Shown here piece after piece: positions 19,391 to 61,441 of a stretch of 64,000 nt of DNA. The DNA lies in assembly GCA_016861185.1 (NCBI GenBank), contig BOKW01000001.1, positions 558,001 through 622,000 of the forward strand, in the 5' to 3' direction. Position 1 is the first letter of the stretch. Each line of letters opens with the position of its first letter. The position numbers and the translations under genes are program-made. This DNA comes from Betaproteobacteria bacterium. GTDB lineage: Bacteria; Pseudomonadota; Gammaproteobacteria; Burkholderiales; Burkholderiaceae_F. Under the pieces are notes generated by a model. It had not been told where the DNA came from and ran no database searches. It worked only from the letters and a program-made list of their open reading frames with translations.

Positions 19391-19467
19391 TTCACCACAG
19401 AGACCCAGAGAACACAGAGAAAAGCGCAAAGTTCTTTCTCGGTGTTCTCGGTGTCTCGGTGGTTCAA
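19391..19467. repeat. palindromic interspersed repeat, copy 1
   Basis: A long imperfect inverted repeat built of 8-bp units like CACMGAGA (left arm from TTCACCACAGAG, right arm ending GTCTCGGTGGTTC). Sits in the 217-bp gap between rpsD and rpoA. Three more copies occur at 20681, 55984 and 57573. It can fold as a long RNA hairpin and might modulate rpoA expression or mRNA stability. Confidence 0.85.
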
Positions 19468-20680: not shown

Positions 20681-20740
20681 ACCACGGAGACACAGAGGGC
20701 ACAGAGAACGACTTGAACCGTTCTCGGTGTCTCGGTGTGA
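20681..20740. repeat. palindromic interspersed repeat, copy 2
   Basis: Left arm ACCACGGAGACACAGAG, right arm TTCTCGGTGTCTCGGTGTGA. Same family as the copies at 19391, 55984 and 57573. It lies between rpoA and rplQ, 66 bp before the rplQ start, next to folded element A. Confidence 0.85.
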
Positions 20741-51262: not shown

Positions 51263-55975
<4,713 letters not shown>

Positions 55976-55983
55976 GGACGGGA

Positions 55984-56057
55984 TTCACCACGGAGACACA
56001 GAGAGCACCGAGAGAAGAGCTTTGAGTTTTTCTCCGTGATCTCCGTGCCTCGGTGGC
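55984..56057. repeat. palindromic interspersed repeat, copy 3
   Basis: Left arm TTCACCACGGAGACACAGAG, right arm ending GTGCCTCGGTGG, with CTTTGAG in the loop. It fills the 100-bp gltB-gltD gap and ends 18 bp before the gltD start. Paired with copy 4 on the far side of gltD. Confidence 0.85.
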
Positions 56058-56075
56058 AAACAGAGATGGTTGAAG

Positions 56076-57563
<1,488 letters not shown>

Positions 57564-57572
57564 AGTCTTGAA

Positions 57573-57643
57573 TTCACCACCGAGACACCGAGAACACCGG
57601 GAAGAACCAATGCTTCTCTCTGTGCTCTCGGTGTCTCGGTGGT
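57573..57643. repeat. palindromic interspersed repeat, copy 4
   Basis: Arms ACCACCGAGACACCGAGA and TCTCGGTGTCTCGGTGGT pair perfectly over 18 bp, the best copy in the window, then less perfectly to the loop. It lies between the convergent gltD and cupin genes and could act as a bidirectional barrier. Confidence 0.88.
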
Positions 57644-57667
57644 CAGATCAATCCCTCGGCCCAGCCG

Positions 57668-58093
57668 CTACCGCTGCAACCGCGCCGCTTCTTCCGGCGT
57701 CGGAAGCTGCGGCCGGTCGCGCTCCTTGCTGACGAGGCACAGGAAGCCGAGCGCGCTGTCGGCGGCGGCGTGGAACTGGTGCCAGGTCAGCGGATCGACG
57801 GTCACGAGATCGCGTTCGGCGATCGCATGGATCTCGTCGCCGAGCCGCACGGTGCCGCGGCCGCGCAGGATCAGCACCGCGTGCGTGTGCTCGTGGCGTT
57901 CGAGCGTCGAATGGCCGCCGGGCGCGATCTCGAAGTAGCGCAGCTCGCTCGCCTGGTCGGGCGGCGCGAACAGCACCTGCCGCGTGATGTCGCGAAACGG
58001 CGCCGTTCCTTCGTCCTTGTAGCGCAGCACCTCGACGGCCTGCCAGCGATAGTCGCCGGCCGCGTCCGGCGCGAAACGACGCACGCCGCTCAT
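57668..58093 (-). CDS. small cupin protein beside the RuBisCO-like gene
   Basis: 141 residues, one cupin domain. Metal ligands are likely in LERHEHTHAVLILRGRGTVR (His-X-His plus a further His; the usual Glu is not obvious) and the second motif LTWHQFHAAAD. Starts MSGVRRFAPDAAGDYRWQAV. No signal peptide. ATG 58093 overlaps the RuBisCO-like stop by 4 bp, so the two are translated together. In Rhodospirillum rubrum a cupin acts one step after a RuBisCO-like isomerase in the MTA-isoprenoid shunt; the same role here is only a hypothesis. Confidence 0.85.
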   Translation of the reverse strand: MSGVRRFAPDAAGDYRWQAVEVLRYKDEGTAPFRDITRQVLFAPPDQASELRYFEIAPGGHSTLERHEHTHAVLILRGRGTVRLGDEIHAIAERDLVTVDPLTWHQFHAAADSALGFLCLVSKERDRPQLPTPEEAARLQR

Positions 58094-59208
58094 GCGTCCG
58101 CCGGCGTTTCGGTGCGCGCGACCGCTTCGACGAACTCGCGGCTGCGCTCGTAGAGCTTCTCGCGCGCCGCCAGCAGCGAACCGCCGATCAGCAGCATGCA
58201 GTTGTCGCCGTATTCGCGCTTCAGTTCCGGCACGCGCTCGACGCTCATGCCGCCGGCCGGCACCGGCAGTGCGGGCTTCAGGCCGTGCCAGGCGGCGCGG
58301 CTGGCCTGCGCGATCGCGAGGCAGACCTCGCGCGCGTAGGTGAAGCGGCCGCCGTGGTTCGGAAAGATCACCGCGTCGGCGCCGAACAGTCTGAACAGCC
58401 TGCCGAGCAGCGCGGCGGGCGCGATGCGGCCTACACCCGCCAGCGAAGGGTGCGCGATGAACGCGAAGTCGGGGTGCTCGCGCCGCAGACCGTTGAGCGT
58501 GGCGACGCCACAGACCATCGGCGCGATCAGCGCGATGCGTACGCCGCGCGCGCGCGCCAGCTCGATCTGTCTGAGCATCTGCGTGCAGGTGCCGAACAGG
58601 CTCGGCGCGTACAGCGTCACCGTTCCGTTGCGCGCGGCGTTGACCTCGTCGACGGCGGCCTGGCACGCGGCCACACGCTGCGCGAACGGCGCGCTCGCCT
58701 GGTCGGCCCAGCCGTGATCGTCCTTGATCACGTCGATGCCTGCGGCGGCGAAAGTTCGGCACAACGCTGCAAGCTGTCCGGGTGTGGAGCCGATCGGTTT
58801 CAAAGCCGTGCACGTCAGCGGCCGGCCGATCACACCCACGAGGCTGCGCAGGCCTTCGATGCCCAGGTTCGGCCCGCCGAAGCGGTGCGCGAGCGCTTCG
58901 GGAACGTCGACGTCGACCAGCTCCACGTCGGGCAGCAGCGAGCTGTTGCCGAACAGCATGTTCAACAACTGCCCGGGTTCCTCGCCGACGCTTTCGGCGG
59001 CGAGCGCGATTCGCGCGAGGCTCGAGCCGTCCGCCAGCGCCTCGATCCGTTCGACGCGTGCGGCGACGCGTTCGAGCACGCCCGCGTCCAGCACCGCTTC
59101 GGCGGGCATTTCGATGCTCTGCTCGAGCGCCAGCACGCGCGCGCGCCGCGGCGCGTCTTCGGCCGCAACGCGTAGCCGGTACACCGCGCGGATGCCGTGT
59201 GGATCCAT
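58090..59208 (-). CDS. RuBisCO-like protein (form IV type)
   Basis: 372 residues, short of the ~410-480 of true large subunits. Barrel motifs remain: NMLFGNSS, TCTALKPIGSTPGQLAALCR, GIDVIKDDHGWAD, FIAHPSLAGVGR, IFPNHGGRF and PAGGMSVERVPEL. Compared with RuBisCO, the lysine of KPKLGL is kept (K137), its second Lys is Ile, the metal triad Lys-Asp-Glu reads K162-D164-H165, and the loop-6 Lys is absent. Carboxylation is therefore unlikely; enolase, isomerase or decarboxylase activity on a sugar phosphate is known for relatives. TAGAAT (59220-59215, minus) lies six bases before the ATG. Confidence 0.9.
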   Translation of the reverse strand: MDPHGIRAVYRLRVAAEDAPRRARVLALEQSIEMPAEAVLDAGVLERVAARVERIEALADGSSLARIALAAESVGEEPGQLLNMLFGNSSLLPDVELVDVDVPEALAHRFGGPNLGIEGLRSLVGVIGRPLTCTALKPIGSTPGQLAALCRTFAAAGIDVIKDDHGWADQASAPFAQRVAACQAAVDEVNAARNGTVTLYAPSLFGTCTQMLRQIELARARGVRIALIAPMVCGVATLNGLRREHPDFAFIAHPSLAGVGRIAPAALLGRLFRLFGADAVIFPNHGGRFTYAREVCLAIAQASRAAWHGLKPALPVPAGGMSVERVPELKREYGDNCMLLIGGSLLAAREKLYERSREFVEAVARTETPADA

Positions 59209-59313
59209 GCGCAGATTCTAAGGGCCGCCGCACGCCGACCGGCCGCGCAGGATCGCCGGCCGGTCGGTGCGCCCGGCACGCGAGCTGCGCGGCGCGGCTA
59301 CACTGCGAACGCC

Positions 59314-59649
59314 ATGGCAGAGCTCCGGATACGCCTAGCGGCGGCGGCGATCGCGGCCCTGTTCGCCGCGCCGGCCGCGCTCGCGCAAAGCGAAGTCGAA
59401 CTGAAACGCCTCGACGAACTGGATCGCAAGTGCGAAGCGGCGCGCGCCGCCAAGCTCGCGCCGATCCGCGCCGAACTGATCGACAAGTGCGTCAGGATCG
59501 ACAAGCGTCCGCGCGAAGCCTGCGAAGGCGAGTTCGCGCACTACGGCGACACCAAGGGCACCGCGCAGGGCAAGGCGGTCGCCGGCCTGTTCTACGACCT
59601 GCCCGAGTGCGTCGCCGCGTTCGAGGCGAGGCAGAAGTACCGGCGCTGA
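59314..59649 (+). CDS. small exported Cys-containing protein
   Basis: 111 residues. Signal peptide MAELRIRLAAAAIAALFAAP with cleavage near ALAQS. The mature part is helical and charged (EVELKRLDELDRKCEAARAA) with four cysteines (in RKCEA, DKCVR, EACEG and PECVA), so two disulfides are possible. Family not recognised. TACACT (59299-59304) is nine bases before ATG 59314. Lies between the RuBisCO-like gene (divergent) and mlaF. Confidence 0.7.
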   Translation: MAELRIRLAAAAIAALFAAPAALAQSEVELKRLDELDRKCEAARAAKLAPIRAELIDKCVRIDKRPREACEGEFAHYGDTKGTAQGKAVAGLFYDLPECVAAFEARQKYRR

Positions 59650-59843
59650 ACGCGGCCCTCACCCCTGCTTGGTACGGCCTGCGGCCGCCGCGCGGGTTCG
59701 TCGTTGTGCTGTGAGACAATCCGCCGGCCGCGCGCGGGCATGGCACTTGCCCGTGTCGTGCGGCGAGCCGTCGCTCCCGGCCCGATCAACAACCCGAAGC
59801 GTCGCGCGCCGAAGTCCTGCGCGCGCGGACGCGACAAATCGCC

Positions 59844-60653
59844 GTGCCCCAAGACGACTTCATCACCGTCGATCGCGTCACGTTCGGCTATGACCCGAGC
59901 CGCACGATCCTCAACGACGTATCGGCCCGCTTCGCGCGCGGCAAGGTCACGGCGATCATGGGCGGGTCGGGCTGCGGCAAGACCACGCTGCTGCGGCTGA
60001 TCGGCGGCGTCTACGCTGCCAACCGCGGCACGATCACCTTCGATGGCCAGCGCGTCGACGCGCGCGACAAGGAGTTGATGTACCGGCTGCGGCGGCGGCT
60101 CGGCATGCTGTTCCAGTTCGGCGCGCTGTTCACGGATCTGACGGTGTTTGAGAACGTCGCGTTCCCTCTGCGCGAGCACACCAACCTGCCCGAGCCGATG
60201 ATCCGCGACATCGTGCTGATGAAGCTCAACGCGGTCGGCCTGCGCGGCGCGGCCCCCTTGCGCATCTCTGAAGTGTCCGGCGGCATGGCGCGGCGGATCG
60301 CGCTGGCGCGCGCGATCGCACTCGACCCCGACCTGATCATGTACGACGAGCCGTTCGCCGGGCTCGATCCGATCAGCATGGGCGTGACGGCGAATCTGAT
60401 CCGCAAGCTCAACGACGCCACCGGCGCGACCTCGCTGATCGTCTCGCACGACGTGCAGGAGTGCTTCATGATCTGCGACTACGCGTACCTGATGTCTTCG
60501 CAGGGGCGCATCGTCGCGCACGGCACGCCGCGCGAGCTGCAGGCGTCCGACGATCCCGAGGTGCGCCAGTTCATCCGCGGCGAACCCGACGGGCCGGTGC
60601 GCTTCCATTATCCGGCGCGACCCGCCGCGGACGAGTTCGGGGTGCGCGTTTGA
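59844..60653 (+). CDS. mlaF: phospholipid ABC transporter ATPase MlaF
   Basis: 269 residues from GTG 59844. Walker A IMGGSGCGKTTLLRL, signature VSGGMARRIALARAIA, Walker B LIMYDEPFAGLDPIS and His in LIVSHDVQECF. C-terminal extension ends PARPAADEFGVRV, which in MlaF contacts MlaB. Inner-membrane complex that moves phospholipids between the membranes. Overlaps mlaE by 4 bp. Confidence 0.94.
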   Translation: MPQDDFITVDRVTFGYDPSRTILNDVSARFARGKVTAIMGGSGCGKTTLLRLIGGVYAANRGTITFDGQRVDARDKELMYRLRRRLGMLFQFGALFTDLTVFENVAFPLREHTNLPEPMIRDIVLMKLNAVGLRGAAPLRISEVSGGMARRIALARAIALDPDLIMYDEPFAGLDPISMGVTANLIRKLNDATGATSLIVSHDVQECFMICDYAYLMSSQGRIVAHGTPRELQASDDPEVRQFIRGEPDGPVRFHYPARPAADEFGVRV

Positions 60654-61441
60654 CTGCACTCGATCTGCTGCAGGCGCTCGGCGCGCGCGCGCTGACGGTG
60701 TTTCGCGTGCTCGGTCATCACGCGTTTTTCTTCGCGGAGCTGCTGCGGCATCTGCCGCAGGCGCTGCGGCGCTTCTACCTCGTCGTGGTCCAGATCCACG
60801 CGATCGGCAACTACTCGCTGGTGATCATCGCCGCATCGGGGCTGGCGGTCGGCTTCGTGCTCGGCCTGCAGGGCTACTACACGCTGAGCCGCTACGGCGC
60901 GGCCGAATCGCTCGGGCTGCTGGTCGCGCTGTCGCTGGTGCGCGAGCTGGGGCCGGTGGTCACGGCGCTGCTGTTCGCGGGCCGCGCCGGTACCTCGCTG
61001 ACCGCCGAGATCGGCCTGATGAAGGCCGGCGAGCAGCTCGCCGCGATGGAGATGATGGCGATCGATCCGAAGAGCCGCGTGCTCGCGCCGCGCTTCATCG
61101 GCGGCATCATCGCGATGCCGCTGCTGGCGGCGATGTTCTCCGCGGTCGGCATCTTCGGCGGCTACGTCGTCGGCGTGCTGCTGATCGGCATCGACCCGGG
61201 GCAGTTCTGGTCGCAGATGCAGGACGGCGTGGACGTCTTCGACGACGTCGGCAACGGCATGGTCAAGAGCTTCGTGTTCGGCGTGGCGTGCACCTTCGTC
61301 GCCCTGTACCAGGGCTACGAGACGCAGGCGACGCCCGAAGGCGTGGCGCAGGCGACCACGCGCACGGTGGTGATCTCGTCGCTCGCCGTGCTGCTGCTGG
61401 ATTTCGTGTTGACCGCGGTGATGTTCTCGACGCCGCGGTAA
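60650..61441 (+). CDS. mlaE: phospholipid ABC transporter permease MlaE
   Basis: 263 residues read from TTG 60650, which overlaps the mlaF stop (TTGA). Membrane segments include LVIIAASGLAVGFVLGLQGY and LLAAMFSAVGIFGGYVVGVL; RELGPVVTALLFAGRAGTSL and AEIGLMKAGEQLAAMEMM are conserved. No ATG lies near, so the TTG start is accepted from the overlap and family length. Confidence 0.93.
   Translation: MTALDLLQALGARALTVFRVLGHHAFFFAELLRHLPQALRRFYLVVVQIHAIGNYSLVIIAASGLAVGFVLGLQGYYTLSRYGAAESLGLLVALSLVRELGPVVTALLFAGRAGTSLTAEIGLMKAGEQLAAMEMMAIDPKSRVLAPRFIGGIIAMPLLAAMFSAVGIFGGYVVGVLLIGIDPGQFWSQMQDGVDVFDDVGNGMVKSFVFGVACTFVALYQGYETQATPEGVAQATTRTVVISSLAVLLLDFVLTAVMFSTPR

What the first reader, a model, noticed from the sequence alone, without database searches (positions are those of the whole stretch)
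57668..59208. RuBisCO-like protein translationally coupled to a cupin: candidate undescribed sugar-phosphate or methylthio-sugar pathway
Seen: a 372-residue RuBisCO-fold protein with the Lys-Asp-Glu metal triad changed to K162-D164-H165, no loop-6 lysine and a shortened N-terminus, whose stop overlaps by 4 bp the start of a 141-residue cupin. The two lie alone between gltD and mlaF, which are close neighbours in relatives, so they look like an inserted module. Known: form IV RuBisCO-like proteins do not fix CO2; characterised members include enolases and isomerases of methionine salvage and sugar-acid phosphate decarboxylases/transcarboxylases of apiose catabolism. In Rhodospirillum rubrum an RLP isomerase is followed by a cupin methylsulfurylase that makes 1-deoxyxylulose 5-phosphate and methanethiol. 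Inference: an RLP plus cupin in one translational unit may be such a shunt, or a new variant because of the His substitution. No MTA phosphorylase, kinase or transporter is adjacent.
Basis: partly seen in the sequence, partly recalled or inferred. Interest (0 to 1): 0.76.

Follow-up and report, generated by a model that had tools for sequence, protein, structure and literature searches.

The report
RuBisCO-like isomerase and cupin sulfur-salvage pair
Two overlapping genes very probably encode a known enzyme pair that recycles a sulfur-containing waste product of S-adenosylmethionine into methanethiol and a building block for isoprenoids, a pathway already worked out in purple bacteria; here it is an ordinary, well-preserved member of a known kind.

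Summary
A 372-aa RuBisCO-like protein (RLP; 58090-59208, minus) overlaps by ATGA a 141-aa cupin (57668-58093, minus). It is not an undescribed pathway. The RLP falls in the clade (support 96/93) of a characterised 5-methylthioribulose-1-P 1,3-isomerase (PDB 3qfw, Rhodopseudomonas palustris RLP1 by recall). The cupin's best solved match is Rru_A2000 (3jzv), the Rhodospirillum rubrum methylthioxylulose-5-P methylsulfurylase. The 'His substitution' marks the clade: 58 of 60 distinct RLP loci have it; the others are a broken copy and a different RLP. The cupin lies downstream in 52 of 57 named loci; one Fibrobacter fuses the two enzymes, another places them around an O-acetylhomoserine sulfhydrylase. 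[quoted passage not shown] Dxs is also present. Two twists: the phosphorylase looks methylthioinosine-type and a deaminase candidate exists, so entry may be MTA to MTI to MTR-1-P; and mtnA is followed by a class II aldolase (Ald2 candidate), so the DHAP shunt may coexist. Acireductone dioxygenase was over cut-off in 0 of 67 family genomes. Function is inferred from homology and context, not assayed.

The parts
58090..59208 (-). RuBisCO-like protein, DeepYkr clade; predicted 5-methylthioribulose-1-phosphate 1,3-isomerase (372 aa)
   Evidence: PDB 3qfw E 6.5e-105, 354 bits, next best 122 bits; tree; residues
57668..58093 (-). cupin; predicted 1-methylthioxylulose-5-phosphate methylsulfurylase (141 aa)
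   Evidence: PDB 3jzv (Rru_A2000) E 1.7e-49, 56% identity over 132 columns; H67, H69, H71, H105 and C119 in 57 of 57 rows
58090..58093 (-). ATGA overlap of RLP stop and cupin start (likely translational coupling, inferred)
   Evidence: read from sequence; the same 4-base overlap (ATGA or GTGA) in 21 of 52 pairs measured, own included
57578..57641 (.). palindromic repeat between the convergent gltD and cupin genes; possible bidirectional terminator (inferred)
   Evidence: fold z-score -7.1; no Rfam match in 55500-61000

Best explanation
The two genes are the signature pair of the MTA-isoprenoid shunt. Proposed working: 5'-methylthioadenosine (MTA) from polyamine synthesis and similar reactions is converted to 5-methylthioribose-1-P, probably by deamination to methylthioinosine (MTI) and then phosphorolysis; MtnA makes 5-methylthioribulose-1-P. 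The RLP then moves the carbonyl by a 1,3-isomerisation to give 1-methylthioxylulose-5-P, and the metal-site cupin uses a thiol (glutathione) to release the methylthio group, leaving 1-deoxyxylulose-5-P for isoprenoids. Methanethiol is captured by O-acetylhomoserine sulfhydrylase as methionine. An Ald2-like aldolase beside mtnA may draw the same 5-methylthioribulose-1-P into DHAP and methylthioacetaldehyde, so the RLP-cupin pair is probably one of two outlets. Shown here: the sequences, clade, conserved residues, adjacency and presence of homologues of the other genes. Inferred: every reaction in this organism.
For: RLP best PDB match 3qfw at 354 bits against 122 for the best MtnW chain; the own RLP groups with 3qfw in a 15-row clade (96/93), and the 57-row RLP1-type clade is apart from MtnW at 100/98. 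Cupin best PDB match is Rru_A2000 itself, 56% identical. R. palustris RLP1 is the enzyme shown to do the isomerisation (kcat 1.3 per s), with cupin partner RPA2170 (PMC5893883, passages). KDDH in 58 of 60 distinct RLP loci. Cupin downstream on the same strand in 52 of 57 named loci, the L079 fusion included, and beside 12 of 12 RLP1-type places of the family search. A natural RLP-cupin ORF of 537 aa in Fibrobacter L079 and a cupin / O-acetylhomoserine sulfhydrylase / RLP gene run in Fibrobacter L084. Own genome: phosphorylase, MtnA with a class II aldolase next to it, a deaminase-candidate hydrolase, O-acetylhomoserine sulfhydrylase over cut-off, Dxs.
Against: No assay. The R. rubrum RLP itself was not fetched, and that 3qfw is R. 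palustris RLP1 is recalled, not printed by a tool. The other pathway genes are not linked to the pair: mtnA, ald2, phosphorylase and deaminase homologues were found in 0 of 70 RLP loci within the flanks held, 1.5 to 5 kb at most. MtnA is not found in 2 of 11 RLP1-type genomes of the family and the phosphorylase in 1 of 11 (these three genomes are 77-84% complete); the deaminase at E 1e-100 is not found in 2 of 11. MtnA and phosphorylase are also common in relatives without the RLP (MtnA over cut-off in 37 of 56, phosphorylase match in 46 of 56), so their presence is not specific to the pair. Four of 57 named loci showed no cupin (L070, L081, L085, L087); the RLP of L081 and L087 runs to the end of the stretch, L070 and L085 had room downstream. 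Model names for the deaminase and aldolase do not prove their roles: the MTA/SAH deaminase model NF012037 scores 271.6 against a cut-off of 779, and the aldolase is below every cut-off shown.
Confidence: 0.9

Rival explanations
1. The RLP is an MtnW-type 2,3-diketo-5-methylthiopentyl-1-P enolase of the oxygen-dependent methionine salvage pathway, and the cupin is an acireductone dioxygenase-like partner.
For: PRK09549 and TIGR03332 (MtnW) are the top NCBIfam names; MtnW chains are the next best PDB matches.
Against: 158.5 bits against a cut-off of 409 and 119.6 against 513.6; the MtnW chains printed have KDDE, this clade KDDH; the tree separates them at 100/98; the cupin matches Rru_A2000 and no ARD model; ARD over cut-off in 0 of 67 family genomes (the control rings over cut-off in 2 of 14). 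MtnB and MtnC were not searched for.
Confidence: 0.02
2. The RLP is an apiose-pathway decarboxylase or transcarboxylase (OiaC/OiaX) acting on 3-oxo-isoapionate 4-phosphate.
For: Weak OiaX profile match (E 1.3e-20); the own form I RuBisCO matches the same profile better (134 bits).
Against: 73.6 bits against a cut-off of 700; the seven best OiaX-profile hits in 369 class genomes (none over cut-off) keep KDDE and fall outside this clade. Apiose genes were not searched for.
Confidence: 0.01
3. The pair works on a related 5-deoxypentulose phosphate (for example from 5'-deoxyadenosine) or has drifted to another thio-sugar, with methylthio salvage as a side activity.
For: MTI phosphorylase is reported to accept 5'-deoxyinosine (PMC6302742 passage), and the DHAP shunt to handle 5'-deoxynucleosides (PMC10986504 and PMC12632272, search listing only). 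The own subclade has its own residues (K-P-I/L and KDDHGW where other RLP1-type rows mostly have K-P-Q and KDDHGL or KDDHGI).
Against: A cupin that removes a methylthio group would be pointless for a 5-deoxy sugar (inference), yet it is kept beside the RLP with its invariant residues.
Confidence: 0.06

Closest known systems
MTA-isoprenoid shunt of Rhodospirillum rubrum (Rru_A1998 RLP, Rru_A2000 cupin)
   Same: Cupin 56% identical to Rru_A2000; RLP in the clade of 3qfw, whose R. palustris protein is 53% identical to the R. rubrum RLP; MtnA and O-acetylhomoserine sulfhydrylase present.
   Different: RLP and cupin overlap here (locus tags A1998 and A2000 suggest a gene between them in R. rubrum); the phosphorylase looks MTI-type and a deaminase candidate is present.
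Rhodopseudomonas palustris RLP1/cupin plus DHAP-methanethiol shunt (PMC5893883)
   Same: 3qfw is the closest solved relative; an RLP-cupin pair and a class II aldolase candidate for Ald2 occur in one genome.
   Different: In R. palustris mtnP and mtnA are together and ald2 elsewhere; here mtnA is next to the aldolase and the phosphorylase is elsewhere.
MtnW (YkrW) enolase of Bacillus
   Same: RuBisCO fold, methionine salvage, next best solved match.
   Different: KDDE not KDDH; different clade.
Pseudomonas aeruginosa MTI route (MTA deaminase plus MTI phosphorylase)
   Same: Own phosphorylase scores highest for S-methyl-5'-thioinosine phosphorylase (376 bits, cut-off 223) and, like its best PDB match 3ozb, has Asn where four other MTA phosphorylase chains printed have Asp.
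   Different: There it is described as an MTA degradation route (PMC6302742 passage), not as a feed to an RLP-cupin shunt.

Membership tests
DeepYkr RLP (5-methylthioribulose-1-P 1,3-isomerase) | Clade placement with a characterised member | tested here: met
   Groups with 3qfw (R. palustris RLP1 by recall) in a 96/93 clade, apart from MtnW at 100/98; the R. rubrum RLP was not in the tree
DeepYkr RLP (5-methylthioribulose-1-P 1,3-isomerase) | Lys-Asp-His at the metal-triad columns, no loop-6 Lys (clade marker found here) | tested here: met
   His in 68 of 70 loci, 58 of 60 when second fetches of one contig are counted once (L014 lacks the column, L015 has Glu); Glu in 31 of 31 rows of L002 and L152-L181, the own large subunit counted twice; His in 3qfw
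DeepYkr RLP (5-methylthioribulose-1-P 1,3-isomerase) | 1,3-isomerase activity | not testable with these tools
   needs purified enzyme
MTXu-5P methylsulfurylase cupin | Homology to Rru_A2000 with conserved metal-site-like residues | tested here: met
   E 1.7e-49; 56% identity; H67, H69, H71, H105, C119 in 57 of 57 rows; their metal role is inferred
MTXu-5P methylsulfurylase cupin | Adjacency to the RLP | tested here: met
   own overlap; 52 of 57 named loci downstream; fusion in L079
MTXu-5P methylsulfurylase cupin | Thiol-dependent release of methanethiol | not testable with these tools
   needs assay
MTA-isoprenoid shunt | MTA phosphorylase (MtnP) | tested here: inconclusive
   One homologue, over both the MTAP (282.9, cut-off 274.85) and the MTI phosphorylase (376.4, cut-off 223) models, better for MTI
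MTA-isoprenoid shunt | MtnA | tested here: met
   395.8 bits, cut-off 279
MTA-isoprenoid shunt | O-acetylhomoserine sulfhydrylase | tested here: met
   two places over cut-off, 655 and 590 bits
DHAP shunt (Ald2) | 5-methylthioribulose-1-P aldolase | tested here: inconclusive
   class II aldolase (PF00596) directly downstream of mtnA; best NCBIfam L-fuculose-phosphate aldolase 202 bits, below cut-off 264; MtnB model 47 bits, cut-off 137; no Ald2 reference compared
MtnW enolase | Equivalog score and KDDE triad | tested here: not met
   119.6 bits against 513.6; His instead of Glu
OiaX/OiaC apiose RLP | Equivalog score and clade | tested here: not met
   73.6 bits against 700; OiaX-profile hits lie outside the clade, though none of them is itself over cut-off
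Form I-III RuBisCO | Full catalytic residues | tested here: not met
   Glu204 to His, Lys177 to Ile, Lys334 to Arg on alignment with form I rows (numbering recalled); 100.5 bits against 438

The most novel reading that the evidence does not exclude
In this lineage the shunt is a rewired variant: MTA is deaminated and enters as methylthioinosine, and the common intermediate 5-methylthioribulose-1-P is split between the RLP-cupin branch (five carbons to isoprenoids) and a mtnA-linked Ald2 branch (three carbons to glycolysis). With no acireductone dioxygenase found, these would be the outlets for methylthio salvage, and neither branch needs oxygen at the steps identified.
Probability: 0.5. Interest if true: 0.38.

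Novelty: new member of a known kind. Interest (0 to 1): 0.25.

Why it matters
It identifies the pair as the known sulfur-salvage and isoprenoid shunt and shows that the KDDH triad and cupin adjacency are usable markers for this RLP clade in records labelled Pseudomonadota, Deinococcota, Chloroflexota, Actinomycetota, Bacteroidota, Acidobacteriota and Fibrobacterota (labels, many of them MAGs). It suggests that betaproteobacteria (by the titles of the nearest named records) join the shunt to the methylthioinosine entry route and to the DHAP shunt. No NCBIfam model in this copy takes either protein over its cut-off, so such genes may carry vague or wrong names; KOfam does have models for both (PMC10663253 passage).

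Tried and rejected
MtnW enolase, OiaX/OiaC apiose enzyme and true RuBisCO were each tested by profile score, residues and tree, and rejected. The idea that the shunt replaces a missing Dxs was tested and rejected: Dxs is present in the own genome at 888 bits. The insertion idea was tested against synteny in RLP-bearing relatives and is not supported. Rfam search of 55500-61000 gave nothing. Three original papers (PMC3475740, PMC3490199, PMC2168653, cited as Erb 2012, Warlick 2012 and Tabita 2007) are not held; their content is used only as told in passages of PMC5893883, PMC4958253, PMC6302742 and PMC10663253. Structure prediction was not used, because solved relatives exist for both proteins.

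Limits. The genome-contig scan is pattern-based (KDDHGWA or R[PA]LTCTALK), stopped at 80 candidates and favours close relatives; no R. rubrum record is among its titles. Adjacency counts are therefore a sample. L014 is a broken or misassembled copy (two pieces, residues 8-88 and 168-363).

Full report
Observation. The RLP (58090-59208, minus, 372 aa) and the cupin (57668-58093, minus, 141 aa) are as described; the RLP stop and the cupin start share ATGA at 58090-58093. Pfam finds RuBisCO_large (E 3.3e-21) and Cupin_2 (E 2.6e-12).

What the RLP is. No NCBIfam model reaches its cut-off. Against solved structures the best match is 3qfw (354 bits, E 6.5e-105), well clear of MtnW chains (122 bits and less). 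I recall 3qfw as R. palustris RLP1; the tool does not print the organism. In a maximum-likelihood tree of 71 rows the own RLP lies in a 15-row clade (96/93) with 3qfw and RLPs of Rhodomicrobium, Rhodovulum sp. PH10, Pseudorhodoplanes and an Acetobacteraceae record; the RLP1-type clade of 57 rows is separated from the two MtnW chains at 100/98, and form I and OiaX-profile rows lie outside (midpoint root). From that tree I had left out three partial rows (L014, L081, L087), ten duplicates (L005-L013, L016) and 20 form I rows. PMC5893883 (abstract and outline, first parts of introduction and discussion, passages) reports that R. palustris RLP1 has the isomerase activity (kcat 1.3 per s; R. rubrum 1.2 per s), that it is 53% identical to the R. 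rubrum RLP, and that without the cupin 1-methylthioxylulose-5-P builds up.

The His substitution. H165 stands where RuBisCO has Glu204. It is present in 68 of 70 RLP loci examined (58 of 60 when second fetches of one contig are counted once); the two others are L014 (broken copy without that column) and L015 (a 30%-identical RLP of another clade, with Glu). All 31 rows of L002 and L152-L181 have Glu, the own large subunit counted twice. 3qfw has KDDH. So it is a clade marker, not a new change. K137 (Lys175) is kept; Lys177 is Ile here; Arg288 aligns with the loop-6 Lys (alignment-dependent, RuBisCO numbering recalled).

What the cupin is. Its best solved match is 3jzv, named in the PDB as Rru_A2000 (E 1.7e-49), which PMC4958253 calls the R. 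rubrum cupin-like MTXu-5P sulfurylase (passages). Identity is 56% over 132 columns; H67, H69, H71, H105 and C119 occur in 57 of 57 rows (own, three PDB chains and 53 loci).

Adjacency. Of 57 named loci, 52 have the cupin downstream on the same strand (L079, a fusion, included), one (L084) upstream at 3.3 kb, and four none (L070, L081, L085, L087; in L081 and L087 the RLP runs to the end of the stretch). Of the 58 loci given to (own included), 52 pairs could be measured: 21 share the 4-base overlap and 47 have a gap of 50 bases or less, the fusion counted in the latter; the six not measured are L060 (no start found), L084 and the four without a cupin. Starts were chosen mechanically. L079 (Fibrobacter) is a single 537-aa ORF with both domains, its RLP part 40% identical to ours. 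In L084 (Fibrobacter) the order is cupin, O-acetylhomoserine sulfhydrylase (TIGR01326 599.7 bits, cut-off 495.1), a 178-aa ORF without an NCBIfam match, RLP. That sulfhydrylase was found in no other of the 57 loci within the flank held. One library search for RLP, cupin, fusion and isomerase together listed five papers; the words fusion and fused in PMC5893883 and PMC6302742 concern Tetrahymena and other enzymes, not this pair, and I did not check the other three for it. So I cannot say that the fusion is unreported.

The rest of the pathway in the own genome (4.03 Mb, 85.6% complete). Phosphorylase: one homologue, 282.9 bits for MTAP (cut-off 274.85) and 376.4 for S-methyl-5'-thioinosine phosphorylase (cut-off 223); best PDB match 3ozb; Asn where the four other MTA phosphorylase chains printed have Asp. 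That this position reads the purine 6-substituent is recalled. Asn stands there in 30 of 30 family phosphorylase loci read, out of 56 family genomes with a match; the 30 include 10 of the 11 RLP1-type genomes, the eleventh having no match. Deaminase candidate: NF006549 'TRZ/ATZ family hydrolase', 660.7 bits, cut-off 540, while the named MTA/SAH deaminase and 5'-deoxyadenosine deaminase models stay below theirs; that NF006549 covers the P. aeruginosa MTA deaminase is recalled. MtnA: 395.8 bits, cut-off 279. Directly downstream of mtnA lies a class II aldolase (256 aa; best NCBIfam L-fuculose-phosphate aldolase, 202 bits, below its cut-off of 264), which I take for Ald2 from family and position; a homologue lies beside mtnA in 24 of 30 mtnA loci read, among them all five RLP1-type genomes in that set. 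O-acetylhomoserine sulfhydrylase: two places over cut-off. Dxs: 888 bits. Acireductone dioxygenase: 0 of 67 family genomes over cut-off, three weak matches below it, none in the own genome. A form I RuBisCO large subunit, a small subunit (PF00101) and a LysR-type gene with CbbR as best, below-cut-off name also exist.

Family profile. RLP matches at E 1e-20 occur in 12 of 67 family genomes; 11 are RLP1-type and each has the cupin beside it. Of those 11, 9 have MtnA over cut-off, 10 a phosphorylase match and 9 the deaminase candidate at E 1e-100. Among the 56 others, 37 have MtnA over cut-off and 46 a phosphorylase match. So the trunk is common in the family, and the RLP-cupin branch is patchy.

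Synteny. gltD and mlaF homologues lie on opposite sides of the pair in L036, L037, L039 and L040, at up to about 4 kb, so the pair is an old resident there, not a private insertion.

Comparison with print. In the held library no paper has both 'methylthioinosine' and 'isoprenoid shunt' (three papers with two of three terms); PMC6302742 (passages) describes the two routes separately, and PMC5893883 does not mention inosine or hypoxanthine. PMC5893883 counts at least 25 species with RLP, cupin, MtnP and MtnA homologues, and PMC10663253 (passages) used the pair in a genome survey. The pair itself is therefore known; the MTI entry combined with it seems not to be spelled out in what I could search, which excludes most subscription journals.

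The distinct-locus count, the Ald2 and deaminase caveats, the distances in the synteny claim and the fusion literature statement were mended; the main confidence went from 0.91 to 0.90 and the 5-deoxy rival from 0.05 to 0.06 because the Ald2 and deaminase names rest on recall or position.

Noticed in passing
L079:4986-6596: Natural fusion of the RLP and the cupin in one 537-aa ORF in a Fibrobacter MAG: independent evidence that the two enzymes act together.
   Followed up: partly
L084:544-3952: Fibrobacter gene run cupin, O-acetylhomoserine sulfhydrylase, 178-aa ORF, RLP: ties the pair to methionine formation from methanethiol.
   Followed up: partly
window 19396-19461, 20683-20737, 55989-56055, 57578-57641: Four copies of a palindromic repeat (CACCGAGACACCGAGA and its complement, up to 3 mismatches); the copy at 57578 folds with z -7.1; no Rfam match in 55500-61000, which covers the last two copies.
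   Followed up: partly
window 59314-59649 (+): 111-aa ORF with a signal-peptide-like start (by eye) between RLP and mlaF, no Pfam or NCBIfam match, homologues downstream of the cupin in L039-L041.
   Followed up: partly
L015 (G039): A different RLP (30% identical, KDDE, no cupin found) that groups with the best OiaX-profile hits of the class, none of which reaches that model's cut-off.
   Followed up: no
L002:515-3457: Own genome also carries form I RuBisCO large and small subunit genes and a LysR-type gene with CbbR as best, below-cut-off name.
   Followed up: partly
L040 and L041 (G041): Two contigs of one genome carry the same RLP-cupin locus with identical RLP rows; either a duplication or an assembly or strain artefact.
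   Followed up: no
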